A model generated the notes under the pieces. The model was not told where the DNA came from. It saw nothing but the letters and a program-made list of their open reading frames with translations, and ran no database searches. Positions 6,399-27,139 of a DNA stretch of 38,273 bases are shown in pieces; the first letter of the stretch is position 1; every line of letters begins with the position of its first letter. This DNA is from Selenomonadaceae bacterium. Lineage in GTDB: Bacteria > Bacillota > Negativicutes > Selenomonadales > Selenomonadaceae. A program made the translations under genes and the position numbers. The stretch spans positions 1-38,273 of the forward strand of contig JAFSOQ010000026.1 of NCBI GenBank assembly GCA_017446845.1, read 5' to 3'.

Positions 6399-6990
6399 TA
6401 TGTTTATCTGCTACTTAAAACATAGACAAAAGTCTATGCTAAGATGATTCGGACAGACCTCGCGGTTCTGTCTTACTGTTTCGTCGTGTCCGTCGTCGCC
6501 AAAGCTACCAACGTTTGTGTAACACTCCACAGTCGTGAATTCCCGGCTAGCCACCGGTACATATCAACAGCGTCTTTCAGGTGACGGTCTGTTGATTCAT
6601 CTTAATAGCTTTCTCCTTTCGTAATATTTGATGAGTACAAAGCCCTCCGGCTTAATTTTTAAGGACCTTGCCCAACGACAACCAACAGGATTCTACTCCA
6701 TAGTTATCAGGACTGTTTCAACCTGCACTGGCACGCATTCCTGTCGTTCCGGCTGCTTTAAAGTTAGCACAAACTGGCTCAATGGCTTTTATAATTTTAT
6801 GAGCCTTCAGCATTACGCTGCACATTTGTCTACCTGATTAGACATTTTTACACATTTTAATCTACCGTTGCCAACTCCTTTCGGGATTAAAAAATTTTCA
6901 AGCTAAAATTTTTGAAACTAGCAATGCGCAGCGTTGCGTACGAACGCGGGAACAACGTTTAAATTATTAATACGTTGCGGCGCGACCGTT
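6399..6990 (-). mobile_element. Degenerate IS200/IS605-type (TnpB) 3' remnant between iolJ and the transaldolase gene
   Basis: A gap of about 590 nt interrupts an otherwise compact operon. On the minus strand it contains pieces resembling C-termini of TnpB proteins of IS200/IS605 elements. One is a 44-codon frame at 6545-6411 beginning REFTTVECY and containing RQNREVCPNHLSIDF. Another, near 6800-6690, reads KAIEPVCANFKAAG then TTGMRASAG before a stop. Stops and frame changes separate them, so no intact transposase exists. A small hairpin (AAGCC-ggag-GGCTT, around 6642-6655) is of the kind found near the right end of such elements. The family call rests on remembered TnpB tails and is moderate. 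The rest of the gap shows no other gene. Confidence 0.45.
6421..6438. promoter_or_regulatory. Perfect 7-bp inverted repeat upstream of the transaldolase gene
   Basis: CATAGAC-aaaa-GTCTATG lies 23 nt upstream of the transaldolase start. It may be an operator, an mRNA hairpin hiding or insulating the weak ribosome site, or the terminal hairpin of the neighbouring IS remnant. The sequence alone cannot choose between these. Confidence 0.4.
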
Positions 6991-6993
6991 GGA

Positions 6994-7833
6994 TCAAACG
7001 TCACGTTTGAAAATTTTCATGTGACGTTTAACATTTTCGCAGGTGCCACGGACAATGGCGTCGCTGAAGTCGAAGAATTTTGCGTTCGGATTAGCCGCGC
7101 AGACTTCGCGAATTTTTTTAGCCGAATTGTCGTAACTTGCCGTCGCGATATTTATTTTCTTAATGCCGTTGGCAATGCAATTTCTGAAATCGTCTTCGGT
7201 CAAACCTGTGCCGCCGTGCAGGACAAGCGGAGTTTTAACGGCGTCGAAAATTTCTTTAAGCCTCTCGATTCGGAGTTTAGGTTGAACGGTGTAATTTCCG
7301 TGAGCGGTGCCGATTGCAACAGCCAACGCGTCAACACCCGTTTCCTCTGCGAATTTTTTAGCCTCGTCGACACTCGTAACCAAAACATCAACGGCTTTGT
7401 AATCGCCTTCCGCGCCGCCGACACGTCCGATTTCAGCTTCGACCGCCGCGCCTTGTGCATGAGCCAATTCGACGACTTCGCGAGTACGACGGATATTTTC
7501 TTCCAGCGGATATTTTGAGCCGTCGAACATGACGGAAGTAAATCCGAGCGACAGAGCAAGTTTAATCGTCTCAAGTGTGCCGCCGTGGTCGAGATGGACT
7601 GCTGCGGGCATTTTGCATTTTTTTGCAGCGGCAAGCATAATCGGTCCGAGCAAATCAAGCGGCGAATATTTCAGCCGACCTTCAGCGATTTGTAAAATCA
7701 GCGGCGTGTTGAGTTCTTCGGCGGCTTGAATCGCGCCCCACGCCATTTCCATGTTGGAGACGTTGAACGCGCCGACCGCGAACGAATTATCATCACGTGC
7801 CGCAAAAAGTTCAGTCATTTTTACGAGCGGCAT
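6994..7833 (-). CDS. iolJ: Class II aldolase, probable 6-phospho-5-dehydro-2-deoxy-D-gluconate aldolase (IolJ)
   Basis: The 279-residue class II (zinc) aldolase of the FbaA/GatY/IolJ family has zinc-ligand motif AVHLDHGGTLE near residue 80, the AEIGRVGG segment, AIGTAHGNY with a further His, and LHGGTGL. In this pathway it cleaves the IolC product into dihydroxyacetone phosphate and malonate semialdehyde. A generic fructose-1,6-bisphosphate or tagatose aldolase cannot be excluded on motifs alone, but the iol context favours IolJ. Its ATG overlaps the stop of the upstream reductase gene (TAATG), indicating translational coupling. Confidence 0.88.
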   Translation of the reverse strand: MPLVKMTELFAARDDNSFAVGAFNVSNMEMAWGAIQAAEELNTPLILQIAEGRLKYSPLDLLGPIMLAAAKKCKMPAAVHLDHGGTLETIKLALSLGFTSVMFDGSKYPLEENIRRTREVVELAHAQGAAVEAEIGRVGGAEGDYKAVDVLVTSVDEAKKFAEETGVDALAVAIGTAHGNYTVQPKLRIERLKEIFDAVKTPLVLHGGTGLTEDDFRNCIANGIKKINIATASYDNSAKKIREVCAANPNAKFFDFSDAIVRGTCENVKRHMKIFKRDV

Positions 7834-8954
7834 TAAATTTCACCTCTCTCGAATTCGTTGACAAATCGGACAAGATTTTTTCTAATCGGAATATGTTGCG
7901 GACAAACACTTTCGCAACGCCCGCATTTAATGCAACTTGACGCGGGATTTTTATCGCGAGCACGAGCCAGCCAACCTTCCCGACGACTTGCAAAAGTTTT
8001 GTTTTCAAACAGCGTCAAATGATTCAGCATTGCGAAGAATCCGCTTATCGGAAGTTTTTGCGGACAGACGGTCGCGCAATAGTCGCAAGCCGTGCAGGGT
8101 ATCAGCGGGATTTTTGTAAGTTCGTTGCGAGCGTCTTCGATAACTTTTTCCTGCGCGGGCGTGAGTTTTGTAAAATCTTTCATCGTGGAAATATTATCGC
8201 GCATTTGCTCCAAAGAGTTCATGCCCGACAAAACGACTGCCACTCCGTCCAAATTTGCCGCGAATCTCAAAGCCCATGACGCCGACGAAGAATTTGGCTC
8301 CGCCGATTTCAAAATCTTTTCGACTTGCGCAGGAGGTGCGGCGAGCATTCCGCCTTTGACAGGTTCCATGACGACAACTTTTTTTCCGTGACGTTGTGCA
8401 ATTTCGTAACATTCACGAGATTTTATCGCGGGTGCGTCCCAATCTGCCCAATTAATTTGCAACTGAACGAAATCAACTTCAGGGTGCGCCGTCAAAATTT
8501 TTTCTAATTCTTCGGGTGTCGAGTGGAAGGAGAATCCGAGATTTTTAATCAAGCCCGCAGATTTTTTCTCCTGCACAAATTCCCAAACGTTGAAGTCGTC
8601 AAAATACTTCGTGCGGTAGTCGCCCAGATTGTGCAACAGATAAAAATCGAAGTAACCTGCGCCCGTCCGTTGTAAAGAGTCGTCGAATTGCTTCAAAGCT
8701 TCGTCTTGAGTTTTAGACCTCCACGCGGCTAATTTGGTTGCGAGTTGAAATTTTTCGCGGGGATAACGTTCAACTAATGCTTGACGAATTGCCTCCTCCG
8801 AGCCGGGATAAGCCCAAGCCGTATCAAAGTAGGTAAAGCCCGCCGCCAAAAATTCATCAACCAACTTTTTGACAAGCTCAATGTCAATCGAGTCGTCAGC
8901 GAGCTTGGGAAGTCTCATCAAGCCGAAGCCGAATTTCTTAATGCCTTCAAACAT
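7833..8954 (-). CDS. Aldo/keto reductase with C-terminal 2x[4Fe-4S] ferredoxin domain
   Basis: The 373-residue protein has an N-terminal aldo/keto-reductase barrel: FGFGLMRLP at the start, the catalytic FDTAWAYPGSEE segment, ATKLA lysine and LLHNLGD histidine regions. A C-terminal ferredoxin-like extension carries two cysteine clusters, CTACDYCATVCPQ and CIKCGRCESVCPQ. Such fusions are common in anaerobes and imply electron exchange with an iron-sulfur partner as well as NAD(P)H. Within this operon it could interconvert an inosose or another carbonyl intermediate; that is inference. It overlaps iolJ by the TAATG junction and lies 15 nt downstream of the alcohol dehydrogenase gene. Confidence 0.88.
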   Translation of the reverse strand: MFEGIKKFGFGLMRLPKLADDSIDIELVKKLVDEFLAAGFTYFDTAWAYPGSEEAIRQALVERYPREKFQLATKLAAWRSKTQDEALKQFDDSLQRTGAGYFDFYLLHNLGDYRTKYFDDFNVWEFVQEKKSAGLIKNLGFSFHSTPEELEKILTAHPEVDFVQLQINWADWDAPAIKSRECYEIAQRHGKKVVVMEPVKGGMLAAPPAQVEKILKSAEPNSSSASWALRFAANLDGVAVVLSGMNSLEQMRDNISTMKDFTKLTPAQEKVIEDARNELTKIPLIPCTACDYCATVCPQKLPISGFFAMLNHLTLFENKTFASRREGWLARARDKNPASSCIKCGRCESVCPQHIPIRKNLVRFVNEFERGEI

Positions 8955-8969
8955 AAAAACGCACTCCCA

Positions 8970-10136
8970 TCAAAAGAGCTTTTTGTAAATCTCAATGATT
9001 TGTTCTTTGGTGGGAATGCGCATTGTATTTTGCGGGCTGCCGCTTTCGAGAGCGTCGGAAGCCATTTTGTCGAGGTAAGAGAAGAATTCTTCTTGAGTGT
9101 GATTGCCCTTCTTGAGCAGTTCGATAACGGGAGGAATGCCGACTTCTTTGCAGAAACGTTCGACTTCTTTAACCATGGCAACAGCGGCGTCGTGGTCGGG
9201 AGTATTTTCGTCGGCAACGCCCATAATTCTGCCGATGTGTGCAAAGCGTGCGGTGTTCTCTTCGATAGCGAATTCAAGGCAAGCGGGGAGCAGGACAGCA
9301 TTGGAAACGCCGTGAGCAATGTGGAACAGTGCGCCAATCGGGCGGCTCATGCCGTGAACGATAGTGACCGACGCATTGTTGAACGCGATACCTGCCTCAA
9401 GCGCGGCAATCGACATTGCAAGGCGTGCCTGTTCGTTTTTGCCGTCTTTGTAGCAAACGGGCAAATTTTTATGAATTTTTTGGATAGCGGAAATTGCAAA
9501 GGTATCTGTGAGCGGCTGAGCTTTGCGGGAGGTATAAGCCTCAATCGCGTGGCAAAGTGCATCGATACCCGTCGCGGCAGTGACACCCGGAGGCGCAGTC
9601 ATTGTAAAGGTCGGGTCAACTACTGCCAATGCAGGAATAATCGACGGACCGCCCAGGAGCATTTTAACGTTATTTTCCGTGTCGGAAATGATTGTGTTCT
9701 TGGTAACTTCGGAGCCGGTACCTGCAGTCGTCGGAATGGCAACCAGATACGGAACGGGCATATCGATAACTTCATGCATGTAGGAATTAATTTTACGGTC
9801 GCCCGCAGTCGTCATGAATCCGATTGCTTTTGCAGTGTCCATGGGACTGCCGCCGCCAAGCGCGATGATGAAGTCGCAATTTTCTTCCTTGTAAACTTTC
9901 AAGCCCGCCTCAACGATTTTGTCGGTCGGCTCGGTGTTCGCGCCGTCGAAGATGACGTAGGGGATATTAACTTTTTTGAGCGCGTCTTCGACCTTGGCAG
10001 CATTGCCGAACTTGACCATAAATTGGTCGGTGACGATAAGAGCCTTGGAACCTTTGCCCGCAATGTGTTCGCCCAATTCGGAAATGACATTGACGCCGGA
10101 AATAATTTTCGCCGGTACCATAAAAGTATAGCCCAT
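8970..10136 (-). CDS. Iron-containing (group III) alcohol dehydrogenase
   Basis: The 388-residue protein has the family's usual length and motifs: GGGSPMDTAKAIG for NAD binding near residue 95, TAGTGSEVTKN, the DALCHAIEAYTSRKAQP signature, and metal-binding histidines in IVHGMSRPIGALFHIAHG. It is the first gene of the divergent minus-strand run, so it is expressed with the iol genes. With no iolA-like semialdehyde dehydrogenase visible, a plausible job is NADH-dependent reduction of malonate semialdehyde, or of another aldehyde end product, to an alcohol as an electron sink. The substrate is inferred, not shown. The start at ATG 10136 has aaaggagag upstream. Confidence 0.9.
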   Translation of the reverse strand: MGYTFMVPAKIISGVNVISELGEHIAGKGSKALIVTDQFMVKFGNAAKVEDALKKVNIPYVIFDGANTEPTDKIVEAGLKVYKEENCDFIIALGGGSPMDTAKAIGFMTTAGDRKINSYMHEVIDMPVPYLVAIPTTAGTGSEVTKNTIISDTENNVKMLLGGPSIIPALAVVDPTFTMTAPPGVTAATGIDALCHAIEAYTSRKAQPLTDTFAISAIQKIHKNLPVCYKDGKNEQARLAMSIAALEAGIAFNNASVTIVHGMSRPIGALFHIAHGVSNAVLLPACLEFAIEENTARFAHIGRIMGVADENTPDHDAAVAMVKEVERFCKEVGIPPVIELLKKGNHTQEEFFSYLDKMASDALESGSPQNTMRIPTKEQIIEIYKKLF

Positions 10137-10193
10137 AAGTACACTCTCCTTTAAATATAATTTGTGATTAAATCTTGGTTATGTTATGGTAGG

Positions 10194-10222
10194 ATTTTAA
10201 ATGTTATCAACTGCAATGTCAA
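10194..10222 (-). promoter_or_regulatory. Sigma-70-type promoter for the minus-strand iol run
   Basis: Read on the minus strand, TTGACA (10222-10217) is separated by exactly 17 nt from TAAAAT (10199-10194). The start point would fall near 10187, about 50 nt upstream of the alcohol dehydrogenase start. This is a consensus -35 with a 5/6 -10 box, so repression (probably by the divergently encoded DeoR regulator) is the likely mode of control. Confidence 0.7.
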
Positions 10223-10262
10223 TATCAAACAGAATAAAATTTTCAGAACCGACAGAAAAAAC

Positions 10263-10291
10263 TTGTCACGCAGAAAGATTTAGTCTACAAT
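10263..10291 (+). promoter_or_regulatory. Sigma-70-type promoter for iolR
   Basis: TTGTCA (10263-10268), a 17-nt spacer and TACAAT (10286-10291) lie 43 nt upstream of the iolR start. The divergent iol promoter begins about 40 bp away, so one regulator bound in between could control both. Confidence 0.65.
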
Positions 10292-10333
10292 CAAAGAAAA
10301 TTATCAGAATTTTTATAGTAAGGGGAGTTTGTC

Positions 10334-11098
10334 GTGAAAATAGAACGAATTCATCAGATACATAAACTGCTTAAGGAAAAGAAAAGAATATCTCTCGACG
10401 AGTTGTGCGCAATCTTCGGCGTGTCAAAAAATACAATTCGCCGCGATATATCCGAACTGGAAGAGGACGGCATAATCAGAAAAGTTTACGGCGGAATTGT
10501 CCTCAAGGAGGCGGAAATAAAATCGCTGGAATCTTTTTCGGCTCGCGAAATACGCAACATCGCCGAGAAACAAAAAATCTGCGCAAAAGCCGCCGCCTTG
10601 GTCAACGACGGAGAAGTTATCTACATTGATTCGGGCACGACCACAATGCATCTCCTTCCGCATCTTGCCGAGAAACAATTTTTGACAATCGTCACGGCAA
10701 GCGTTTACGTACTCGACTTGGCGACGCGCTACACCAATTTAAATGTTATAGCGACGGGCGGCAACCTTCAAGCTCCGATAAAAGCGTTCGTCGGTGCCGC
10801 TGTCAAGGAATGCATAAGAAATTTCAACTTCTCGAAAATATTTTTGGCAAGCACGGGCATTTCCATTGAACACGGTGCGACTAATGCTTCGCCGCTCGAA
10901 TGCGAAATTAAAAAAGAACTCGTCAAAAAATCGGGCGCGAAATTTTTGCTCGTCGACAATTCCAAATTTGATGTCGCCTCGCTCATGACTTACAGCGACT
11001 TGACCGACATTGATAACGTTGTCACCGATAAAACGCCTTCCGAACAATACGTCAACTACTTTAAAGAAAACGGAATCAATCTGATTGTCACGACTTAA
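10334..11098 (+). CDS. iolR: DeoR-family transcriptional regulator, probable iol repressor
   Basis: The 254-residue protein has an N-terminal winged helix-turn-helix typical of DeoR (residues 1-55: RISLDELCAIFGVSKNTIRRD, then ELEEDGIIRKVYGG). A C-terminal sugar-phosphate-sensing domain follows, with DSGTTTMHLLPHL near residue 100. It is divergent from the iol run and converges on iolG, the arrangement expected of a local repressor. In Bacillus subtilis IolR is of the same family and is relieved by the IolC product; the same inducer is a reasonable inference here. The start at GTG 10334 follows aaggggagttt. Confidence 0.85.
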   Translation: MKIERIHQIHKLLKEKKRISLDELCAIFGVSKNTIRRDISELEEDGIIRKVYGGIVLKEAEIKSLESFSAREIRNIAEKQKICAKAAALVNDGEVIYIDSGTTTMHLLPHLAEKQFLTIVTASVYVLDLATRYTNLNVIATGGNLQAPIKAFVGAAVKECIRNFNFSKIFLASTGISIEHGATNASPLECEIKKELVKKSGAKFLLVDNSKFDVASLMTYSDLTDIDNVVTDKTPSEQYVNYFKENGINLIVTT

Positions 11099-12203: not shown

Positions 12204-13046
12204 TTAACCGAAATTCTTTTTGATAACGGCGTCGGCGTGTTCTTTGCCGATTCTGTAAACGTCGTTGGGGTTCATGCGATAATATTCGGGGCGGAAAAGT
12301 TCGAGCGATACAACGTCCTGCGCCCAACCGATTTTCTTAAGCGTTTGGAAAATTTCATCAAGGTTAATGCAACCTGTGCCGGGCCAAAGTCTGTCTTCGT
12401 CAAGCAATGCGCCAATCGGGAAATCTTCCGTGTCGTTAAGGTGCACTATGAAAATTTTCTTGCCGTCGGCTTTTGCCAAATCTTCAATCTTGGAATCCAT
12501 GCCGTGGAAGTGGAAGCAGTCAAGAGTTATTCCGACATTGTCGAGGTCAACCGCTTGAATAATCTCGTAAGCTTCGCCGAACGTGTTGATTGAGGCGGCG
12601 GGGTGTCCGATGAATTCTACCGAAACTCTCATGCCGTATTCGGCGGCGATTTTGCCCATTTCCTTCAAGCAGGCGATTGCCGATTTATGAATCTCGGAGC
12701 GGGTGACTTTGTTGAGGCTGACGGTCGGAACGGTGATAACGGTCTTGCAACCGATTTTTTGTCCCCATTCGCACATTTGCTTAAGCTCGTCTTTAATGCC
12801 CTGCCAACCTTCCGCCGAACGATTGTTGAAAAAGCAAAGGGTATTGAACGCGAGCGGAGCAATGTTATGCGCTTTGAAGAAATCTGCCAACTCTTCGATA
12901 GAGTGTTCGGCGAGATAATCCCTCATTCTGTCCATTGTGCGCGGCTCAATCATATCGTAGCCGTATTTTTCGGCGAGGATAATATCCTGCTCAATAGACA
13001 TTGCCTGACAATTCAGCGCGGTCGCTTCATTCATGCTCAGTTTCAT
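12204..13046 (-). CDS. iolI: Inosose isomerase (IolI), sugar-phosphate isomerase/epimerase TIM barrel
   Basis: The 280-residue protein closely resembles Bacillus IolI throughout. It begins MKLSMNEATAL, followed by EKYGYDMIEPRTMD and LAFNTLCFFNNR. Metal-site segments are VEFIGHPAASINTF, LDCFHFHGM, FIVHLNDTEDFPIG and VSLELFRPEYY, supplying Glu, Asp, His and Glu ligands. It interconverts 2-keto-myo-inositol and 1-keto-D-chiro-inositol, letting other inositol isomers enter the pathway. The related IolE dehydratase and IolH have different N-termini and are less likely. ATG 13046 follows agagagggc. Confidence 0.9.
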   Translation of the reverse strand: MKLSMNEATALNCQAMSIEQDIILAEKYGYDMIEPRTMDRMRDYLAEHSIEELADFFKAHNIAPLAFNTLCFFNNRSAEGWQGIKDELKQMCEWGQKIGCKTVITVPTVSLNKVTRSEIHKSAIACLKEMGKIAAEYGMRVSVEFIGHPAASINTFGEAYEIIQAVDLDNVGITLDCFHFHGMDSKIEDLAKADGKKIFIVHLNDTEDFPIGALLDEDRLWPGTGCINLDEIFQTLKKIGWAQDVVSLELFRPEYYRMNPNDVYRIGKEHADAVIKKNFG

Positions 13047-13178: not shown

Positions 13179-13261
13179 TGAAGAATTTTTGGAAGGAAAA
13201 ATATCAAAGGCACCGAAAAAAAATCGTCGTTGTGATTTAAATTTGTGTAAGGGGTTTGGAC

Positions 13262-14065
13262 ATGGACGAAAAAAATTTTTCTGAACAAATTCTTGACGCG
13301 ATAAAAGCCAACGCGTTCGAGATAAAGAAAATTTTACTCAACCTTGATGATTGCGTTCCGAAGTCGGATTTTGTTGACGCACTTGAAAAACTTCATCAAA
13401 CGGAACTTGAAGTTGAGCGGCTGAAAAAAAATCGCACGCGCCTTGAAAATGAAATTGATAATAAAACTTCCGAGATTACCGATTTGCTCAGGCAACACAC
13501 CGATTTATCAGATAAAGTTTACAATCAGCGCGAAGAATTGGAACGCAGACAAAATTCTTTGAAAAAGGCGCAGGATAAAATTTCTCGGCTTGAAACAGAG
13601 TTGGAAGAAAAAAATTCCCGACTTGCTGATTACAACAAAAATTATTCCGATTTGGAACAAGCGATAGCCGCCTACAAAAATCTTTCCGATGAAACGAAAT
13701 TTTCCTTGGAAGGCATCTTCGGCAGGGAAAATTCTCCGATGAGTTTTTTGGCGGGCGTCTTGCAACCGGGACATCTCGAATCGTTGTTTGAATTCGTTGC
13801 AATCACCATGAACAACGGCAACAATTCAGAGACCGAAATTTTATCAAAGCTGTTCGATTTCGGTTTCAATGCCGTAAACAGCGGACGTCGCGAAAAAATT
13901 TTTGCTCGGCTCAATGTTCAGGTCGGCGATGACTTTTCAAGCTCGACCATGCGAAAAACTTCCGACAGCCCCCAACTCGGCACCGTCAAAAAAATTTTGC
14001 TCGACGGCTACAAATATGTTCGCACAAATAAAATCGTTAAGCCTTCGCTCGTTTCTTTAGGATAA
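13262..14065 (+). CDS. GrpE-like nucleotide-exchange factor with long coiled coil
   Basis: The 267-residue protein has a charged helical N-terminus, a long coiled coil (about residues 40-145, rich in E/K/L/N heptads), a helical middle, and a C-terminal stretch (about 218-266) resembling the beta head of GrpE: VQVGDDFSSSTM, then GTVKKILLDGYKYV and KIVKPSLVSLG. GrpE tails read VGxxFDxxxH...GYxxxxxxxRPAxVxV. GrpE dimers release ADP from Hsp70, so this is probably the exchange factor for the Hsp70-like proteins encoded downstream. The start chosen is ATG 13262, 7 nt after GTAAGGGG; a TTG 6 nt earlier is too close to that site. The GrpE call is by motif and needs structural support. Confidence 0.6.
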   Translation: MDEKNFSEQILDAIKANAFEIKKILLNLDDCVPKSDFVDALEKLHQTELEVERLKKNRTRLENEIDNKTSEITDLLRQHTDLSDKVYNQREELERRQNSLKKAQDKISRLETELEEKNSRLADYNKNYSDLEQAIAAYKNLSDETKFSLEGIFGRENSPMSFLAGVLQPGHLESLFEFVAITMNNGNNSETEILSKLFDFGFNAVNSGRREKIFARLNVQVGDDFSSSTMRKTSDSPQLGTVKKILLDGYKYVRTNKIVKPSLVSLG

Positions 14066-14077
14066 GGAGTTTTGCTC

Positions 14078-17000
14078 ATGACGAAAATTATTACAAAGTT
14101 GCCCGTGACTGAAGACGCCCTTAAAGATTTCAAAGAGAGCGCGCTGAAAAAAATTATCGGCGAGGCGGTCGGCGTCGTCGAAGAAAGTTTTTCTATCCTC
14201 TGCAATGAAATTACGAATCGTTTCAACTCCGGCGAATGGATTTACATGCAAGACAAGGACGTTTATTACATCAACGACATTGTCGCGCTTATGCCAAACT
14301 TAAGTAATTTTAATCGTTGCACCGTCGCTGAACATTTAAACTACACTTACGACGCCGCCAAACTAAAATTCGGGAATTTTAACGGCGACTTGATGACCGA
14401 AGGCGAAATGAATAAATGTTTTAATGACAGGCTCGGTTATTTTCGTAACGCGGAAGGTTCGGTTTTCGGTTATCGCGGAATGACTTTCAAGAGGAACGGT
14501 CAATATTGGTACAAATATTTTTATAAGAACAGCTACAAAGGCACGACCAGACAACACGGCAACCGCACGGACAACGACAGCATGATAAGCGTTCCGATTT
14601 TTCGTTTCAGCGGCGAGGACAGTTCGCCCGCGACAGCCGCCGCCGCAGTTTTGTATTGGCTGAAATATAATTTGACGCCGCAAAGTTTTAAGTCGACAGC
14701 GATAAGAGAAATTTTCAACACGCTGAAAACTTTTTACGCCAATTATAAAGTTTATCTCAAGGCGGACGGCAATAATATTGTTCTCGACCGCGATAAAATT
14801 TTTTCGGCAGTTTTATCGGGCACGGAATTTGATTTTCTCCCGAATGCAAAAATTCTTCTCGACGCAACTGAAATCGACGCCGGAGATGAATACGTAGCCA
14901 AATTGAAAACTTATTTGCTAAAGTGCGATAACATTCGCGCCGAGCTTGACCCTTACGACGAAAATATTTTGCTTGACCCGAATCGCGGACATTGGGATTT
15001 ATGGGACTACGGCGAAAATTCCGAGAAGGCGGGCGAAATTACTTTGACGGAAAGTCTGACCGCTCGCGACCCTGCCGACGATATTAACCACGGAATTGTT
15101 GCAATCGACTTCGGAACTAAATCAACCGTCGTCGTCTACGAAAATGACCGCCTGCAAATTTTGCCGTTGCAAGTCGGAACCGGTCAATACGGCGAGGGCG
15201 TCAAAGCCGAGAATTACGAAAATCCTACTGTGATTCAATTCATTGACGTTGAAAAATTTTTTGCCGCGTACAATGCCCGCGAAGGTCGTCCCAAGACCGA
15301 ATGGAACGACGTAACCGTTTCGCACACCGCATTTAAAAATCTCATGGAGAGTAACAGCGAGCATTATTATTCGTTCCTGACGGGCTTAAAACATTGGTGC
15401 GGCTCAAATAATCGGCTCAAGCTCAAAGACCGCAAAAACGTCACGAAAGATTTACCGCCCTTCCTCGAACTCATGGCGGACGATGTTAATCCGCTTGAGT
15501 ACTACGCGTATTATTTGGGCTTGTATATCAACAACATGCTGCAGGAGAAAAGAATTTTTTTGAAATATATCATGTCTTTCCCCGTGACGTATGATAATGC
15601 AATTCGGGAACGGATGCGGCGTGCATTTGAACGCGGGCTGAAAAAATCTTTGCCGACGGCTTTGCTGTCCAATGAACGGGCGATGAAAAATTTTGTCGTG
15701 CAAGACGGCGCGAGTGAACCTGCTGCCTACGCGATAACTGCTCTGCAGGAATACGGCTTTGACCCCGAAGGCGACGAGGAAAATTATTACGCGGTGTTCG
15801 ATTTCGGCGGCGGCACCACCGATTTTGATTTCGGTGTCCTGCGCGAGTCTGATCTTGACCGCTATGATTATACGCTGATTCATTTCGGCGAGAACGGCGA
15901 CAGAACTTTGGGCGGCGAAAATCTTTTGAAACTCTTGGCGTTTGAAGTTTTCAAGGCGAATCAAACAAAATTGCTCAATCCGAAAGAGGGCGATAAAAGC
16001 GTCGGGAAAATTCAATTCACGCTCGATGCCGATAAAAGAGATTTCGACGGCAGTACTGCGCTGATAAAAGAATCTCAAGGAGCAAATCTGAACATGTACA
16101 ACTTGGCGGAAAAATTGCGTCCGGTATGGGAAGACCCCGACGGCGAAATTGCAAAAAAAATTTTCGACAGCGGCACGGTTGAAGTTGACCTGTTCACGGA
16201 CAATAAAAATAATCCTTTGCCAAATATCGTCTTGGATTTAACGTCGCTTGACTTGAAAAAAATTTTGCGCGACAGAATTGAACAGGGCATAAAAAATTTT
16301 TTCATTGCCATGAAGGAAGCGTTCGCGGTCGGCAGTCGCGACAGAGATTTAAACATCAAGCCGCTTGAGGAGATTGACGAGATTTCAATTTTCCTTGCGG
16401 GCAATTCCTCGAAGTCAAAACTTGTCACGGAAATTTTTGCAGAGTATATCGGCGAAACTCAACTTGTCAACGAAGACGGCGTTTTAACTCTCACTCTCGA
16501 CGGCGCGGAAGAAAAATCCAAGCTGCAAGAAATTTTCGGCTTGACGGCTGAACAAATTCCGAAGTTCAAAATTTATCCCGCGCTCGGCACGGAGTCTGCT
16601 CACCAAATTCAAAAAGCTCGCGGCGTCGAAGTTAATCCGAATGATTTGGCAGCTCCGACGGGTAAGACGGGTGTCGCGTTCGGTCTGCTAAAGTGCAGGG
16701 ACAGCGGCAACGTCCAAATTATCCACGTCACGCCCGACAAAAATAAAACGCCCTTCCAATTTTATATCGGCAGGAACAAAAAACGCAAATTCAAAACCGT
16801 TATCGACAAAAATACAAAGTTCGACGAGTGGTATCCTTTTATCGACGCCGGCAACAGTTTTGATATTCTTTACAGCGACCTTCCCGAAGCAATTTCCGGT
16901 TCAATGGATGTAAGCAAGGCGCGGCGCGTGAATGTGACTTTGACCGATTGCGACCCGCACTTGACGGTTTTTATCCGCGCGGTCAAGTCGAACGTTATCG

Positions 17001-17086
17001 AATACCAAATCGCCGAGGACATAGACGACTTGAGCAATCCCGAAAAATTGAAGGACGCCGAGCCTTTCCCGATAACTTTGACGTGA
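14078..17086 (+). CDS. Large Hsp70/actin-fold ATPase with 340-residue N-terminal extension
   Basis: The 1002-residue protein starts at ATG 14078, 8 nt after ataaggag. Residues 1-335 are an unrecognised extension with Tyr/Asn-rich stretches. From about 339 it has the Hsp70 ATPase signatures: phosphate-1 motif AIDFGTKSTVVVY (about 343), phosphate-2 motif FDFGGGTTDFDFG (574-586) and an adenosine-type motif IFLAGNSSKS (about 771-780). The remaining 220 residues include a possible beta-rich region. There is no DnaK lid or EEVD-like tail. It follows the GrpE-like gene by 12 nt and precedes the PAAR-effector gene by 9 nt. The position suggests a chaperone for the effector/spike or the sheath; that is inference. 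Confidence 0.75.
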   Translation: MTKIITKLPVTEDALKDFKESALKKIIGEAVGVVEESFSILCNEITNRFNSGEWIYMQDKDVYYINDIVALMPNLSNFNRCTVAEHLNYTYDAAKLKFGNFNGDLMTEGEMNKCFNDRLGYFRNAEGSVFGYRGMTFKRNGQYWYKYFYKNSYKGTTRQHGNRTDNDSMISVPIFRFSGEDSSPATAAAAVLYWLKYNLTPQSFKSTAIREIFNTLKTFYANYKVYLKADGNNIVLDRDKIFSAVLSGTEFDFLPNAKILLDATEIDAGDEYVAKLKTYLLKCDNIRAELDPYDENILLDPNRGHWDLWDYGENSEKAGEITLTESLTARDPADDINHGIVAIDFGTKSTVVVYENDRLQILPLQVGTGQYGEGVKAENYENPTVIQFIDVEKFFAAYNAREGRPKTEWNDVTVSHTAFKNLMESNSEHYYSFLTGLKHWCGSNNRLKLKDRKNVTKDLPPFLELMADDVNPLEYYAYYLGLYINNMLQEKRIFLKYIMSFPVTYDNAIRERMRRAFERGLKKSLPTALLSNERAMKNFVVQDGASEPAAYAITALQEYGFDPEGDEENYYAVFDFGGGTTDFDFGVLRESDLDRYDYTLIHFGENGDRTLGGENLLKLLAFEVFKANQTKLLNPKEGDKSVGKIQFTLDADKRDFDGSTALIKESQGANLNMYNLAEKLRPVWEDPDGEIAKKIFDSGTVEVDLFTDNKNNPLPNIVLDLTSLDLKKILRDRIEQGIKNFFIAMKEAFAVGSRDRDLNIKPLEEIDEISIFLAGNSSKSKLVTEIFAEYIGETQLVNEDGVLTLTLDGAEEKSKLQEIFGLTAEQIPKFKIYPALGTESAHQIQKARGVEVNPNDLAAPTGKTGVAFGLLKCRDSGNVQIIHVTPDKNKTPFQFYIGRNKKRKFKTVIDKNTKFDEWYPFIDAGNSFDILYSDLPEAISGSMDVSKARRVNVTLTDCDPHLTVFIRAVKSNVIEYQIAEDIDDLSNPEKLKDAEPFPITLT

Positions 17087-17095
17087 GGAATTTTT

Positions 17096-18817
17096 ATGGC
17101 AGATTATTTGACTGAAAACGCGGTGTTCACGTGCAATCAAGGCGGAATAATTAAATGCGAGGACAGCAATAATAAATCGGTCAGTCACAACGGCGCGGCT
17201 CTTTTGACAACGAGCGCAACGCTTAAATCCAAAACGGGCATTTGCCAAATTTTGTTGGCGGCTCAAGTTAAACCTCCGCTTTGCAAATGTCAGTTGACTA
17301 AATGGTTGCCGGGCTTTTCTCCGATGAAAATTTCCAATGGCAATCCGCTTTTGACTGATTCGGCAAAAAATTTTTGTAATGTCGGCGGTTCAATCAGCGT
17401 ACAATTTTCGGGGCATGTCAATAAAATCACGACGGGCACCGCTCCTGCCTCGATGAACATTGCGGCGGCTCAAGTCGTCAAAGTCGTTAATCGCGACGAA
17501 AAAATTTCTGCGGGCGAGCAAAATAAAAATTCGGCTGAAGTTCAAAGCAAATCATCATCTGCGGAAAAAATTGACACTCCCGAAAATTTAGACGCTCCCG
17601 AAAAAATTTCAGCCGTTGCAGGAATTTCGGCAACTTCAAAGAAAATTGAGCAGGGAAAATTATTTTGCCCGTTCAAAGCGGATTCGGAGCGTTGTAAAAA
17701 TTGCGCGTACCCGAAAACCGCGACGACGATTGATAACGACGCAAAAAAGTTGTTCGATAATTATCGGCAGTACACGGAAGAAATTTCCAATCGCGACGCC
17801 GTGGACGAGCATTATTATAAAATGTTTGAGGCTTACGGGAAGTCGCGCTGGTCGTATCAATCGCACCACATCATTTGCGGCAATCAAGTTTTTGCTCCGC
17901 ACGTCGAGATTGTTCGGTTGGCTAATTTTTTCGGCTACGACATAAACAACGCGCTGAATTGTATTCGATTGGTCTCGCGCGAAGACGATTACGGCGCAAA
18001 GCCCGGCGGCAAATCGGCGAGTGCTTATGACATAATGAGTTTGTCGAAAATTCAATGGCATTTGGGCGGACACAGTTATAAATTTTCGCCGAAGGAAACC
18101 GAACGCATAAAAAAAAGAATTCGATACTTTAAAAAGAACGGCGGCGATAAAATTTTAAACTACAGCGAACTTCTATCCGCCGAGCTTACAAAAATCGAAT
18201 CGGCTTTGACGGCGCAACGCGTCTGCAAAAATGATGAACGGCAGAAAAAAATTTTTATCGAGCGCATGAACAATTTATCGCGCAAAGTCAAGGCGGCTCT
18301 CGGAAGTTTTGCCGAAAAGCCGCAGCAAAGTTTTCCGTTCTACGTTTCCAAGGAGGCATATACATTCGCCTTTGCCCTGCCGCAAACCGCGAAAATTATT
18401 TTGATTCGCCGCGCAGAGGATAAAACTTTTTTGTTTGAAAAATTTCGCGCCGAACGCTTTGATGAAATAATTCAATCCGAGGACGGACGAAAATTACTGT
18501 TCAAGCCGATTCTGGAAAAAATTTTGAGCAATCCGAAAAAATTTTCACTCGACACGCGGCGCAGTAAAATTGAGTGCGTGACCTTCTGCGAAAACGCGGA
18601 GTATTTTATTTTTGCCGATGACGTGAATTTTTCGGACGTGCCCTTTCTGACCGATGAAAAATTTTCTAAAAAACTTATCGGGACTGCAAGCGACGGAATA
18701 AAATTTTTGGAGGACAACGAATCTGAAATTTTAATCTGGTTGCGCGATTTGCAGGACGATTATCAATACACCGCGCCGAAAAGAAAAATTAAAGAGCGAC
18801 TTGCTTTGATTGAATAA
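17096..18817 (+). CDS. PAAR-like (DUF4280) protein fused to an AHH-type nuclease toxin
   Basis: The 573-residue protein begins with a DUF4280/PAAR-like tip domain (about 1-125): cysteines in VFTCNQGG, KPPLCKCQLTKW and FCNVGGSISVQFSGH, plus GNPLLTDS. A low-complexity linker (about 130-190) and a CKNC pair follow. Residues 250-335 look like the AHH nuclease family of the HNH/Endo VII superfamily: SYQSHHIICGNQVF (His257-His258), GYDINNALNCIRLVS, and WHLGGHSYKF (His322, His326). The last 230 residues are unassigned. No signal peptide is seen, as expected for cargo loaded on a spike. DUF4280 proteins cap VgrG spikes of contractile systems. The next gene encodes an Imm11-like protein, so this is probably an antibacterial effector. 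Confidence 0.8.
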   Translation: MADYLTENAVFTCNQGGIIKCEDSNNKSVSHNGAALLTTSATLKSKTGICQILLAAQVKPPLCKCQLTKWLPGFSPMKISNGNPLLTDSAKNFCNVGGSISVQFSGHVNKITTGTAPASMNIAAAQVVKVVNRDEKISAGEQNKNSAEVQSKSSSAEKIDTPENLDAPEKISAVAGISATSKKIEQGKLFCPFKADSERCKNCAYPKTATTIDNDAKKLFDNYRQYTEEISNRDAVDEHYYKMFEAYGKSRWSYQSHHIICGNQVFAPHVEIVRLANFFGYDINNALNCIRLVSREDDYGAKPGGKSASAYDIMSLSKIQWHLGGHSYKFSPKETERIKKRIRYFKKNGGDKILNYSELLSAELTKIESALTAQRVCKNDERQKKIFIERMNNLSRKVKAALGSFAEKPQQSFPFYVSKEAYTFAFALPQTAKIILIRRAEDKTFLFEKFRAERFDEIIQSEDGRKLLFKPILEKILSNPKKFSLDTRRSKIECVTFCENAEYFIFADDVNFSDVPFLTDEKFSKKLIGTASDGIKFLEDNESEILIWLRDLQDDYQYTAPKRKIKERLALIE

Positions 18818-18844
18818 AATTTTCAAGACGGGAGATTACACTCG

Positions 18845-19405
18845 GTGAAATTTTTTGTCATGTACGCGGAAACTTGCATGGAAGATTATGTCGTTCCGGG
18901 CGAAGAAATTTTTCAGCTGGAACGAGCTTGCTTGAATTCGGAATTTCAATTTCTGGACAAGTCAACGCTCACCGCAGAAATTTCCGACGAAGGCGGCTTA
19001 TACTTCCCCGATTTTATTTTGTGCGGAGTAATTCCTTTGGTTTCGACGGAATTTAAACGCGTGCTTGAAAATTTCGGCGCGGATTATATTTTCTTCAAGC
19101 CGATTCGATTGACGGCTGCCGAACTCGGACGCGTCGAAGAATTTTGGTTGGCATTGCCGCCGCGAATAAATTGCTTGGATTGGGAGCGCAGTACAATCGA
19201 AGTCGAAGATAACGAATTTTTGCCGCCCGTCGAACTCATACGCGAGGCGAAAAAAATTTTCATAGACGAAAACCAAATCGGACGTTATGACATTTTTAAA
19301 TTGGCGGGCGTCGTCAATCAAGAAATAATCGTAACGGAGCGACTTAAAAACGCTCTGGAAGTCGCGAACTTGGAAAATTTATTTTTTTATGAAACGGGGG
19401 AATAA
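18845..19405 (+). CDS. Imm11-like immunity protein
   Basis: The 186-residue acidic cytosolic protein starts at GTG 18845 (gacgggag upstream). Its C-terminal third has the pattern of the Imm11 (DUF1629) immunity family: FIDENQIGRYDIFKLAG, then EIIVTERLKNALE and LENLFFYE. The N-terminal half (YVVPGEEIFQLE, PLVSTEFKRVLENFG) also fits that family. It sits directly after the nuclease-effector gene, the normal order for toxin and immunity, and should neutralise the AHH nuclease. The next gene starts 3 nt after its stop. Confidence 0.75.
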   Translation: MKFFVMYAETCMEDYVVPGEEIFQLERACLNSEFQFLDKSTLTAEISDEGGLYFPDFILCGVIPLVSTEFKRVLENFGADYIFFKPIRLTAAELGRVEEFWLALPPRINCLDWERSTIEVEDNEFLPPVELIREAKKIFIDENQIGRYDIFKLAGVVNQEIIVTERLKNALEVANLENLFFYETGE

Positions 19406-19407
19406 TT

Positions 19408-21690
19408 TTGGCGAATCAAACTCACAAGACAATTATCTTTGAGGAATTTGACAGCTCGACGGATAATCTCTACACGATAATTAACAACGACCCGTCGGAT
19501 AATAAACTTGCCGAAGAAATTGAAAACAAATTGCTCGTCAAGTCGTTTGAAGAGTTCATGGAAAAATTTGCGCCGAAAGTTTACGAAGTTGCTTGGCGCG
19601 AACCCGACAGCGGCAATATTAAATTTCTTTACACGACCGACCCCACAAAGTTTGCGGGCTATCCCAATTTCCAAATTAAAATAAGCGACCATGCCTTTTA
19701 CAGAGCACTTGCCAAACTTTACGAGACACGCGGCAGCACGGGGCAATCCAATTTGAAATTCGACGACAGGGAAATTATGGAAATGTTGACGCCGAAAAAA
19801 GAATTGGAAGAGGCTCGCGACATTCGCCAGAAAATGGATTACAATCTGCAACTTTACTACGAGGCAGAGGCTCGCGGCGACAGAAGCGAAATGAATTTGG
19901 CAAGCGATAAAGTTATGGAGTGCAGAGAAAAAATCAGCGAATATGCCTCCTCGCCGCTGAATAAATTGTTGCCGATTCTTATCGACGACATCGATAAAAA
20001 ATTGGAACTGCTCGGCAGCGGAGTCAGTAGCGACGGCACGAAAAGCGATACTCCCAAAGCTCTTCCGAGTTACGGCGTTTTATATCTCAATGAGGCGGGG
20101 CAACTGGATATTCTCGACAATCAAAAACGGGAAACTGTTCTTAAAGCTCTGCCGTCTGCGGACGACAAAAAAGGCGGCTCGCTCGTCGTGGCGAACGATA
20201 ATCATCCCGCGCAAATTACGACCTTGCCCGCCAAACCCGCGCAAAATAAATCCGAAAGTCCCGTGCCGGACAAGCAGACTTTGCATAATCAAATTGCCGA
20301 AACTATCGTTATGGATTACGAGGAAGAAGCCGAAATTCAAAACGAGCAAGTTAAAAGTTTAATCGTGTCGACTTTCGCGCCGCTTGCCGCAAATAAAAAA
20401 ATTGACCTCGCGACGCTTGACGAAGATAAATTGGTTGCCACGAAAAAAATGTATGAAAATGCTTACGCGTCGGCTCGGCAATCTTTTGCAAACGAAATGT
20501 CCCGAATTGTCGAAAGTCTTTTGGGCGTCAAAACATTTTTCGACCACGCGACAGTTGACGGCGGCGAATCTTCACAAATTCCCGAAGGCGTAATCATTGC
20601 GAATTGTAAGGCGTCTCGGTTGCTGAAGATAAAAGATAAATTTACTTCCAAGATGAAACTTTTGGGCAAAGACCAAGGAAGAGACCGAATTTGGTTTGCA
20701 GTTGTGCCGAGTGTCTTCGAGAAACCGCCCGTTAAAAATGATACCAATTTTGAAAAAACCGGTCCTCTCGGCGGTCCTTTGCGCAGAAAAAAAGATTCTG
20801 CCGAAAAAATCAGCGACGATTATGTTAATCTCAATGCCTTGAAAGAATTTATTGAGATTATGGAAAAGGCAAAGATTATGACGGTCTTTAATATTCGCGC
20901 CAAAAACGGCAACACATTCGCCGATTTGACCGCCGCCGAAGTTCAAAACAAAATTGAAACTTTCGAGACTTGCAACTACAGCCACGCGGCTTATGCTTAT
21001 CCGAATTTTACTTTGATTAACGAGAGAATTTTGAAACCGTTTGAAGGTCAGGACACTACTGAAATAAATCTGCCCGGCATTTTTATCGACGCGGCATATC
21101 CTGCGGCGGGTTTGCTCGTCGCCTCTCAGCAGACAAAAGTTTTGGACGGCAGAAAACTTAAATACGACAGGGAAAGTCCTTGTGTCAGCGTCAATTTCGA
21201 GGAATTGGAAGTTAAGAAAAAATTGCCGACGAAATTTAATCGCGAAGCTGTTTTGCGTCGCAGCGAAGATTTAATCCGCGCCATCAATGAAAATATGTTC
21301 GGCTTTGCATTCAGCGGCGACGAGGTTAAAGACAACGACGGCGTTTGGAAAAATTCTTACGTCCACTGCGCCCGCACTCTCGCCAAAAATAAAAAGACCG
21401 GCAATTACAAGCCGATTTATCAAACGCTCACGGAAGATTACATCGCGCAAGATTTGAACCTTTTGGCGTCCAAAAGTAAGGAAGAAGTTGAAAAGCGTAT
21501 CAAAAGAATCAATAAAGATTGCGAAGACAAAAACGGTCAGAAAAATCGCTACGCAGGTTGCGTGAATCTTCTTTTGCGCGAGAATGAAAAAATTGACGAA
21601 CAGCTCAGCGAAGACAGCGGCAAAATTAAAATTCTGGTTCACTTCGCGGGCGGCGACAGTTACGTTGAAATTGATGTCGAGAGCGATTGA
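19408..21690 (+). CDS. Putative contractile sheath protein (TssB/TssC-like by position)
   Basis: The 760-residue protein starts at TTG 19408, 7 nt after a GGGGG ribosome site. The N-terminal part (1-200) has LLVKSFEEFMEKFAPKVYE and a helical segment. A Lys/Asp/Pro-rich linker (about 200-320) separates it from a C-terminal half containing IWFAVVPSVF, a YAYPNFTLI segment, LPGIFIDAAYPAAGLL and YVHCARTLAKNKKTG. No transmembrane segments are seen. The assignment rests on gene order: it immediately precedes the tube and spike genes, as sheath genes do in contractile systems. The length would fit a fused small-plus-large sheath subunit. I do not recognise a diagnostic motif, so another structural role is possible. 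Confidence 0.5.
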   Translation: MANQTHKTIIFEEFDSSTDNLYTIINNDPSDNKLAEEIENKLLVKSFEEFMEKFAPKVYEVAWREPDSGNIKFLYTTDPTKFAGYPNFQIKISDHAFYRALAKLYETRGSTGQSNLKFDDREIMEMLTPKKELEEARDIRQKMDYNLQLYYEAEARGDRSEMNLASDKVMECREKISEYASSPLNKLLPILIDDIDKKLELLGSGVSSDGTKSDTPKALPSYGVLYLNEAGQLDILDNQKRETVLKALPSADDKKGGSLVVANDNHPAQITTLPAKPAQNKSESPVPDKQTLHNQIAETIVMDYEEEAEIQNEQVKSLIVSTFAPLAANKKIDLATLDEDKLVATKKMYENAYASARQSFANEMSRIVESLLGVKTFFDHATVDGGESSQIPEGVIIANCKASRLLKIKDKFTSKMKLLGKDQGRDRIWFAVVPSVFEKPPVKNDTNFEKTGPLGGPLRRKKDSAEKISDDYVNLNALKEFIEIMEKAKIMTVFNIRAKNGNTFADLTAAEVQNKIETFETCNYSHAAYAYPNFTLINERILKPFEGQDTTEINLPGIFIDAAYPAAGLLVASQQTKVLDGRKLKYDRESPCVSVNFEELEVKKKLPTKFNREAVLRRSEDLIRAINENMFGFAFSGDEVKDNDGVWKNSYVHCARTLAKNKKTGNYKPIYQTLTEDYIAQDLNLLASKSKEEVEKRIKRINKDCEDKNGQKNRYAGCVNLLLRENEKIDEQLSEDSGKIKILVHFAGGDSYVEIDVESD

Positions 21691-21702
21691 GGAGGTTAAA
21701 AA

Positions 21703-22152
21703 ATGGTTTTTATTGTTAAAATCACTGCAGATGACGGCACGGTTATCGAACTCGGAAAAGCGGAGCAAGAGGAAAATAATCAGGGAAATTGCTTGACGGA
21801 CGTAAATATTCACTTGGACACAATCGACAACGACGCCAAACAAAAATCCTCGGCAATGCTCGCGAAAATTGAAGTCTTCGGAAAAATTTACGAGGAAAGC
21901 AATTCGAAGACCATGTACAAATCTCTTTTCGATTGGGCAAAGTCGCTCGAAAAAAATCAGTGGTACAGAACCGTTGACATTGAAATAAAAGATGACGGCG
22001 GCGAAGAGACTTTCCGCAAATATCACTTTGAAAAAGTTTTCGTCGTCGATTACAAAGAATTTTACGGCAAAAACAATGATATGAAGGACAATCACTTTAA
22101 ACTTTTCATGACGCAAAAAGAAAATACTTTCAAGACAATCGAAACGTATTGA
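21703..22152 (+). CDS. Putative tail-tube protein (Hcp/TssD-like)
   Basis: The 149-residue protein is beta-rich and of tube-subunit size. Segments such as VNIHLDTIDNDAKQKSSAML, SLFDWAKSLEKNQWYRTVDI and RKYHFEKVFVVDYKEFYG match the general pattern of Hcp/phage tube proteins annotated in Firmicutes injection clusters. The ATG at 21703 follows a strong gaggaggt site, suggesting high expression, as expected for a polymerising subunit. It lies between the putative sheath and the VgrG-like gene. The Hcp call is by size, order and general resemblance, not a unique motif. Confidence 0.6.
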   Translation: MVFIVKITADDGTVIELGKAEQEENNQGNCLTDVNIHLDTIDNDAKQKSSAMLAKIEVFGKIYEESNSKTMYKSLFDWAKSLEKNQWYRTVDIEIKDDGGEETFRKYHFEKVFVVDYKEFYGKNNDMKDNHFKLFMTQKENTFKTIETY

Positions 22153-22167
22153 TTGGCGGTCACTGCA

Positions 22168-23595
22168 ATGCAAATAAAAAACTTCGCCAAAATTGAATTC
22201 CTCAAAACTTTTGAGCTGATAAAACACGTCGGCGAACACAGCCGCTTAAATTTTTCCGCGTCGATTGTCGAAACTGCGGCGGAAAATTGCCTTGAGAGCA
22301 CGGGGAAAATAATTTCGGTGACGACCGATGACAATATGCCTGTATTTTTCGGACGAGTCGAATCAGTAGAAGTTGAAAACTTTTTCGGCTCGTCCGAAAT
22401 TCATGTTTCGTGCGTGTCGTTGTCGATTTTATCCGATGAAAATTTTAAGACGCGAATTTTTCACAATCCCGATAAAAAATTATCCGACGTGTTGAGTGAT
22501 TCGCGGCTCGCTTTGGAGTCTTGCAATCTGAAACTTTCTGCGGACGTTGCCAATTTGAAATATCCGAACGTTATTTTGCAGAATAAGGAAACGAATTTTC
22601 AATTTATCTCGCGGCTCGCAAAAAATATCGGGCAAAATTTTTGGGTCGTCGATACGATTCAGCCGGCGAATATTATCATAGATTCTTGCATAAATAAATC
22701 TGCCCGCGAAATCAAACGCAAGCAAATTATTTCCGAACGTCGAGTTAAAGTCGGCAAAAGTTTTAAATCGTTCGTGAAGGTCGATAAAATTTTTGAGCTT
22801 GGGCAGGTCGTCACGGTCGAAGGCAATTCAAAAGAGTTCGTCATCATCGGCGTAAAAATTTCGCTTGAACACGAGGTATATATTTTTTGCTACGAACTGG
22901 CAGAAAATAAACCGTCGCCGCCAAAAATTTCCGACGCGCCGATTTTAGCCAAAACCGTGAAACTTCACGCCAAAGTTAAAAATACCAATGACCCGAAAAA
23001 ATCGGGCAGGATTCAAGTCAGTTTCGACGATAAATTTCTTGAGGATATGGACGAAAAAAATCCGCTGTGGATTCCCTATCGCACGCCCTACAGCGGCAAG
23101 AACGGCGGCATTGTTTTTATCCCCGACGAAGGCGACATAGTTGAAATTTTTTTTACCAATGAGGAAGTTTATTGCGTCGCCGCGCTCCGAGAAAATCCGC
23201 TTGCCGAAGAATGTCAAAAGGTCGCAGAAAAATATATCGGCAACAACACAAAGCAGAGAATTTTTTTTAAGGAAAAGTCGCTTGAATTGTTTTCCGATAA
23301 ATACAAAATCGTTATGGACGAACGCGGCATTGAATTGGTCGTCGATAAAAATTCAATCGTCATAAACAAGCAGGGGATTTTGATTCAGACGGCGGACAGT
23401 AAAATTTCTCTCGCAAAAGATTTAGCCGCGCAGGTCGGCGGGAAAATTGAATTGCGCGCCAAAGATACGGAAATAAATTCCGGCGGCAAAATAAAATTGG
23501 GCGGCAATGAAATTTCTGTTGACGGGAGCGGCGCGACGAATGTTAAAGCCGGCAGCACGTTGAAACTCGCGGGCAGTAAGATTGAACTTTGCTGA
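22168..23595 (+). CDS. VgrG-like spike protein
   Basis: The 475-residue protein has an N-terminal gp27-like region (to about 250, including a QNKETNFQFISRLAKNIGQ segment typical of late-control D / VgrG proteins). A gp5-type OB domain follows at about 270-345 (NDPKKSGRIQVSFDD, LWIPYRTPYSG, GGIVFIPDEGDIVEIFF). The C-terminal tail, from about 380, has short repeating beta strands ending GSTLKLAGSKIELC, as in a triple-stranded beta spike. A PAAR-like protein encoded upstream would sit on this tip. I chose ATG 22168; an in-frame TTG at 22153, directly after the tube stop, is the alternative. Neither has a strong ribosome site, so coupling to the tube gene is likely. Confidence 0.82.
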   Translation: MQIKNFAKIEFLKTFELIKHVGEHSRLNFSASIVETAAENCLESTGKIISVTTDDNMPVFFGRVESVEVENFFGSSEIHVSCVSLSILSDENFKTRIFHNPDKKLSDVLSDSRLALESCNLKLSADVANLKYPNVILQNKETNFQFISRLAKNIGQNFWVVDTIQPANIIIDSCINKSAREIKRKQIISERRVKVGKSFKSFVKVDKIFELGQVVTVEGNSKEFVIIGVKISLEHEVYIFCYELAENKPSPPKISDAPILAKTVKLHAKVKNTNDPKKSGRIQVSFDDKFLEDMDEKNPLWIPYRTPYSGKNGGIVFIPDEGDIVEIFFTNEEVYCVAALRENPLAEECQKVAEKYIGNNTKQRIFFKEKSLELFSDKYKIVMDERGIELVVDKNSIVINKQGILIQTADSKISLAKDLAAQVGGKIELRAKDTEINSGGKIKLGGNEISVDGSGATNVKAGSTLKLAGSKIELC

Positions 23596-27134: not shown

Positions 27135-27139
27135 GACAA

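What the first reader, a model, noticed from the sequence alone, without database searches (positions are those of the whole stretch)
13859..14065. GrpE-type head domain in the first gene of the operon
The C-terminal segment VQVGDDF...GTVKKILLDGYKYV...KIVKPSLVSL follows the GrpE tail pattern (VGxxFD, GY, RPAxV), after a long coiled coil. This was not obvious from the mostly coiled-coil N-terminus. It would give the operon its own nucleotide-exchange factor for the Hsp70s.
Basis: partly seen in the sequence, partly recalled or inferred. Interest (0 to 1): 0.68.

Follow-up and report, generated by a model that had tools for sequence, protein, structure and literature searches.

The report
GrpE-like partner of a divergent Hsp70
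The first gene of this operon, in a MAG whose nearest named relatives are gut and rumen Selenomonadaceae, encodes a diverged relative of GrpE, the protein that helps Hsp70 chaperones swap ADP for ATP; it is paired across several phyla with an unusual neighbouring Hsp70, so this toxin operon probably carries its own private Hsp70 machine.

Summary
The 267-aa protein (ATG 13262 to 14065) has a long coiled coil, a helical bundle and a C-terminal beta domain, the layout of GrpE. Pfam GrpE does not hit it. Profile-profile comparison of its family with canonical GrpE gives P 94-96% (E 1e-7 to 1e-9; shuffled controls at most 8%). A coil-free family HMM retrieves canonical GrpEs, and nothing else, after its own members. 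An AlphaFold2 model (pLDDT 90) has GrpE structures as its top seven of 350,542 PDB chains. The family spans Selenomonadaceae, Bacilli, Clostridia, Proteobacteria, Campylobacterota and Lentisphaerae. In 51 of 62 places with room it lies directly upstream of an Hsp70-like gene, usually of the g2 type. g1 and g2 co-diverge (r = 0.92). g2 (14072-17086) is a divergent Hsp70 by profile and by model. Exchange activity is inferred, not shown. Hsp70/GrpE pairs in bacterial conflict systems have a published precedent, so this is a new variant of a known kind. Most unusual is the setting: toxin and VgrG-like genes without a detectable T6SS sheath.

The parts
13262..14065 (+). g1: GrpE-like protein, 267 aa (first gene of the + strand operon; TTG 13256 is an alternative start)
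   Evidence: ORF; AAGGGG then ATG with 7-nt spacing; family alignment A3
13361..13678 (+). long helix / coiled-coil stalk, model residues 34-139
   Evidence: AlphaFold2 model m529b013b0f18, pLDDT about 91-98 over most of it
13688..13882 (+). four-helix region between stalk and head, model residues 143-207 (conserved GIF..., LWDY, LFDFxF)
   Evidence: conservation
13901..14062 (+). GrpE-type beta head, model residues 214-267
   Evidence: strands; profile-profile match; Foldseek and VIA matches to GrpE
14072..17086 (+). g2: divergent Hsp70-like protein, 1004 aa, directly after g1; the likely partner
   Evidence: hhalign P 98.9%, E 1e-17 to Hsp70 over residues 340-798; model m38e397492c0f pLDDT 86.9; top Foldseek hits are DnaK/Hsp70, E 1.9e-17
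15089..16681 (+). Hsp70 nucleotide-binding domain of g2 (DFGTKST, FDFGGGTTDFDFG, LAGNSSKS motifs)
   Evidence: end of domain read from the model
16709..17083 (+). beta-rich C-terminal region of g2, placed like the Hsp70 substrate-binding beta domain; no helical lid seen
   Evidence: secondary structure; about 700 aligned columns with lid-deleted DnaK 5obu; assignment is inference
17096..18817 (+). g3: PAAR-like (DUF4280) N-terminus and AHH nuclease-toxin domain
   Evidence: Pfam over cut-off
18845..19405 (+). g4: Imm11-family immunity protein
   Evidence: Pfam E 6.3e-14
21703..22152 (+). g6: weak Hcp/TssD-like match
   Evidence: Pfam E 0.011, below cut-off
22153..23595 (+). g7: VgrG-like spike protein
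   Evidence: PF04717 E 3.2e-9; NCBIfam VgrG models below cut-off
   Evidence: PF00012 E 7.1e-62

Best explanation
g1 is a diverged GrpE homologue: a coiled-coil stalk, a helical bundle and a beta head. It works as the dedicated nucleotide exchange factor of the divergent Hsp70 encoded next to it (g2). By analogy with GrpE-DnaK, the head would enter or brace the cleft of g2's nucleotide-binding domain, rotate subdomain IIB and release ADP, so that g2 can rebind ATP and let go of its client. In this window the clients are probably proteins of the same operon, such as the PAAR-like nuclease toxin or the Hcp/VgrG-like spike parts, held or loaded by the chaperone. Shown here: homology and fold of g1, Hsp70 homology of g2, and conserved pairing and co-divergence. 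Inferred: dimerisation, nucleotide exchange, and the identity of the client.
For: GrpE homology by profile and by structure. The full-length hhalign alignment runs through stalk, bundle and head, 151 columns, P 96.3%, E 1.7e-9. The family HMM finds canonical GrpE genes, the next 12 hits after its own members. g2 is an Hsp70 by profile and model. An Hsp70-like gene lies directly downstream in 51 of 62 distinct members with room. Distance-matrix correlation g1-g2 is 0.92 against at most 0.28 in 2000 permutations, and in three genomes with two tandem pairs each g1 stays with its own g2. Basic residues match GrpE's GR-x-IR positions: K at 259 in 23 of 33, and K or R at 262 in 29 of 33. Relatives also carry Pfam-level GrpE-like genes directly upstream of other Hsp70 genes.
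Against: No biochemical data. Four family members (L006-L009) have stalk and bundle but no head, next to another Hsp70, so the stalk has a role without exchange. The window protein lacks the D and H of F-D-x-x-x-H. Mirror-tree correlation also reflects shared descent of linked genes. In Vibrio, Photobacterium and Ferrimonas loci the two genes share a locus but are not adjacent. Some specialised Hsp70s (HscA, HscC) do not use GrpE (PMC4753570).
Confidence: 0.72

Rival explanations
1. g1 is a GrpE-derived scaffold that has lost exchange activity: it dimerises through the coil and tethers g2 to other operon proteins, and the head only docks on the Hsp70.
For: Headless members exist; F-D-x-x-x-H is degenerate in the window clade; coil length varies widely, proteins of 196 to 468 aa and more.
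Against: The head is kept from Selenomonadaceae to Bacilli, Vibrio and Sulfurovum with invariant G251 and near-invariant G242 and V266, which points to a working surface.
Confidence: 0.15
2. g1 is a general nucleotide exchange factor for all Hsp70s of the operon (g10, g13, g15).
For: Several Hsp70 genes lie in the same operon; operon co-occurrence in L075 and L077.
Against: Outside this operon g1 travels with g2 alone. g12 and g14, the coiled-coil genes that precede g13 and g15, are not GrpE-like, so those pairs may have other partners. Pairing in tandem duplications is strict.
Confidence: 0.1
3. The GrpE likeness is chance or convergence of a small beta domain behind a coiled coil.
For: Pfam GrpE gives no hit on the window protein; VIA Z of 5-6 is modest and long-helix proteins score as high over the coil; an hmmsearch of the coil-free profile against PDB sequences lists no GrpE.
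Against: Shuffle, reversal and other-family controls; top 7 PDB matches all GrpE; canonical GrpEs are the only non-family hits of the HMM; neighbouring gene is an Hsp70.
Confidence: 0.03

Closest known systems
GrpE (PF01025), nucleotide exchange factor of DnaK
   Same: Order and fold of stalk, helical bundle and beta head; G-x-V...GY...K-x-x-K-x-S-x-V tail; sits directly before an Hsp70 gene.
   Different: Below Pfam detection; different helical bundle sequence; the FDPxxH motif is degraded here; partner is a divergent Hsp70 with a 330-aa N-terminal extension, not DnaK; relatives hold a canonical GrpE as well.
HSP70 + GrpE genes in GAP1-N2 GTPase-centric conflict systems (Kaur et al. 2020, PMC7159879)
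   Same: A private Hsp70 with its own exchange factor inside a predicted bacterial conflict locus, in Firmicutes among others.
   Different: No GTPase, FNIII or DnaJ domain came up in the Pfam scans of this operon; GrpE there was recognisable as such; here the locus has PAAR-toxin, Imm11, Hcp-like and VgrG-like genes.
Type VI secretion spike modules (VgrG, Hcp, PAAR/DUF4280 effector-immunity)
   Same: Three spike-type genes and an effector-immunity pair in one operon.
   Different: No VipB/TssC sheath in 41 genomes searched, and no phage sheath or TssK in 7.

Membership tests
GrpE superfamily (homology) | Coiled-coil stalk, helical bundle, then beta head in that order | tested here: met
   AlphaFold2 model: helix 34-139, helices 143-207, strands 214-266; full-length hhalign
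GrpE superfamily (homology) | Beta-domain fold of GrpE | tested here: met
   Top 7 Foldseek PDB matches are GrpE, best E 3.9e-3, prob 0.95; VIA 1dkg_A Z 6.2, 86 residues, 4.2 A. Scores are modest and rest on a predicted model.
GrpE superfamily (homology) | Significant profile similarity to canonical GrpE | tested here: met
   P 94-96%, E 1e-7 to 2e-9; shuffles at most 8%
GrpE as curated in Pfam (PF01025) | Score over the Pfam gathering cut-off | tested here: not met
   No hit for the window C-terminus at E up to 1 and none among the families shown for the whole protein; 14 of 33 family members match weakly, best E 5.2e-5
GrpE as curated in Pfam (PF01025) | Conserved F-D-P-x-x-H motif | tested here: not met
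   Window: F-S-S-S-T-M; wider family F-D in 28/33, H in 15/33
GrpE (function) | Homodimer that accelerates ADP release from a cognate Hsp70 | not testable with these tools
   needs purified protein
GrpE (context) | Linked Hsp70 partner gene | tested here: met
   51 of 62 members directly upstream of an Hsp70-like gene
Hsp70 (g2) | Hsp70 nucleotide-binding domain | tested here: met
   hhalign P 98.9%; Foldseek to DnaK E 1.9e-17; Pfam HSP70 itself gives no hit
Hsp70 (g2) | Substrate-binding domain with helical lid | tested here: inconclusive
   beta-rich C-terminus fits SBD-beta; no lid helices in the model
Type VI secretion system | Contractile sheath (VipB/TssC) and baseplate TssK | tested here: not met
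   VipB absent from 41 genomes, TssK from 7, with E. coli control ringing; G003 is listed 100% complete and has the operon

The most novel reading that the evidence does not exclude
A private Hsp70 machine (a divergent Hsp70 with its own GrpE-like exchange factor, backed by three or four further Hsp70-like proteins) folds, loads or even drives delivery of a PAAR-toxin with VgrG/Hcp-like parts in bacteria that have no contractile sheath: ATP-driven chaperone cycling in place of sheath contraction.
Probability: 0.2. Interest if true: 0.88.

Novelty: new variant of a known kind. Interest (0 to 1): 0.56.

Why it matters
It adds a GrpE branch that Pfam and NCBIfam miss, paired across several phyla with an equally undetected Hsp70 branch. 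That suggests exchange-factor/Hsp70 pairs have radiated into specialised systems. In this genus the pair opens an operon with toxin, immunity and spike-like genes but without a detectable T6SS sheath, so it gives a testable handle on how such sheathless sets work.

Tried and rejected
Pfam, PHROGs, NCBIfam and PADLOC scans of g1 return only coiled-coil noise. Profile search of PDB sequences with the full family is swamped by coiled coils; with the coil-free profile it lists no GrpE, and the g2 profile lists nothing at E 0.01, so the structure evidence rests on models. The search for related loci with the g1 alignment failed for lack of conserved stretches, so g2 was used. g8, g11, g12, g14 and g17 were tested as further GrpE relatives and rejected. 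Absence of canonical GrpE in the own MAG is not read as replacement by g1: the MAG is 74% complete and 25 of 25 good related genomes have canonical GrpE. tblastn of two family members against plasmids found nothing. Paper searches for Hsp70 with VgrG/Hcp, contractile injection systems or SrfB gave nothing relevant. No complex model of g1 with g2 could be made.

Full report
What is there. The reading frame 13256-14065 on the + strand encodes the quoted tail in frame. ATG 13262 is the likely start, 7 nt after AAGGGG. It is the first gene of the + strand run: the gene upstream (12204-13046) points the other way, and g2 follows directly. Residue numbers for conservation below follow the 269-aa frame from TTG; model residue numbers are two lower.

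Is it GrpE. Pfam does not see it. Homologues were found in 36 of 119 related genomes. Aligned and compared by hhalign with GrpE genes taken from relatives, the C-terminal 46 columns match the GrpE tail at P 93-94.5%, E 3.5e-7 and 8e-8; column shuffles reach at most 8%. A phylum-wide set of 33 sequences aligned over its full length gives P 96.3%, E 1.7e-9, with 151 columns running through stalk, bundle and head. To exclude coiled-coil bias a coil-free alignment was made. It gives P 94.6% against at most 4.0% in 150 shuffles and 0.4% reversed; in an HMM search of all open frames of the fetched loci, the hits after family members are 12 canonical GrpEs and nothing else, E 1.8e-5 to 0.036. Other gene families of the same operon score at most 7.4% against GrpE.

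Structure. The AlphaFold2 model has mean pLDDT 90.4, one helix 34-139, helices 143-153, 159-166, 169-184 and 191-207, and strands 214-216 to 262-266. Foldseek ranks seven GrpE chains first in the PDB (T. thermophilus, human GRPEL1, M. tuberculosis, E. coli), best E 3.9e-3 with probability 0.95. Whole-chain TM-scores are low (0.2-0.35), as expected for a long flexible stalk. VIA-align places GrpE at Z 5.0-6.2 over residues 168-267, above the best unrelated chain there at 3.9. These Z values are modest; the argument rests on GrpE being the only recurrent family over that region and on the sequence profiles.

The partner. g2 has no Pfam hit, but its alignment matches Hsp70 over residues 340-798 with P 98.9%, E 1e-17. 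Its model (pLDDT 86.9) has DnaK as best PDB match, E 1.9e-17, with about 700 aligned columns. It has an additional 330-residue N-terminal part and a beta-rich C-terminus without an evident lid. A genome-wide scan with g2 brought 80 loci from Selenomonadaceae (Quinella and relatives), Peribacillus, Lysinibacillus, Clostridium, Ruminococcus, Epulopiscium, Ghiorsea, Sulfurovum, Vibrio, Photobacterium, Lentisphaerae and others. In many the gene directly upstream ends in the same head. Over all distinct family members with enough downstream sequence, 51 of 62 are followed directly by an Hsp70-like gene. Pairwise distances of g1 and g2 correlate at 0.92 (permutations at most 0.28), and in three genomes with two tandem pairs the pairing is kept. 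Linked genes share history, so this shows stable pairing, not contact. A set of isolated 790-890-aa g2 paralogues has no such partner.

Mechanism. GrpE's beta domain inserts into the DnaK cleft and rotates subdomain IIB, opening the nucleotide pocket (review PMC4753570). The shared fold, stalk and Hsp70 neighbour make the same action on g2 the likeliest function. The same review notes that GrpE works with cognate Hsp70s only and that HscA and HscC do without it, so exchange must be tested, not assumed. Headless homologues next to another Hsp70 show that the stalk can be kept without the head.

Setting. In this genus the pair heads an operon with a PAAR-like AHH-nuclease toxin, an Imm11 immunity gene, Hcp-like and VgrG-like genes, three further Hsp70s (one with a VWA domain) and a weakly SrfB-like protein. 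No VipB/TssC sheath was found in 41 genomes, including one listed 100% complete that has the operon, and no phage sheath or TssK in seven. Elsewhere the pair stands alone (Peribacillus, L145) or beside a HerA/FtsK-like ATPase of about 1000 aa, with a WYL-domain regulator in Vibrio. The pair is thus a module reused in several contexts.

Known or new. Kaur et al. 2020 report HSP70 with GrpE in about 14% of GAP1-N2 GTPase-centred conflict loci (PMC7159879). The idea of a private exchange factor is therefore not new. The family, its pairing with this Hsp70 branch and the toxin/spike setting were not found in the papers searched. The paper library is incomplete.

Noticed in passing
window 17096-23595 and related genomes: PAAR-like toxin, Hcp-like and VgrG-like genes in a genus where no VipB/TssC sheath was found (41 genomes, E. 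coli control positive), nor phage sheath or TssK in seven genomes.
   Followed up: partly
window 27131-27910 and 27923-29362: g11 and the C-terminal half of g12 share a domain of about 190 aa with no known family (hhalign P 99.9%, E 1e-33).
   Followed up: no
L006-L009 (about 231-241 aa): Headless relatives of g1: coil and bundle kept, beta head missing, followed by an Hsp70 of about 525 aa instead of g2.
   Followed up: no
L055-L069, e.g. L068:6430-6768: Other diverged GrpE proteins, most over the Pfam cut-off, lie directly upstream of Hsp70 genes of about 490 aa in the same genus; in L068 such a pair sits directly before the g1-g2 operon.
   Followed up: partly
L166:12123-15290, L171:12682-15663, L171:8148-9188: Outside this genus the pair can sit with a HerA/FtsK-like ATPase (PADLOC mad8 and HerA hits in L171, DUF87 in both) and, in Vibrio, a WYL regulator: a possible defence locus.
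   Followed up: partly
L094 (G000:C73), 6781-10905: A second GrpE-like/Hsp70-like pair in the same MAG, with an intact F-D-x-x-x-H motif in its head.
   Followed up: partly
window 31772-33835: Hsp70 fused to a C-terminal VWA domain.
   Followed up: no
L154:24-2420: A 798-aa open frame ending in the GrpE-like head, much longer than other members.
   Followed up: no
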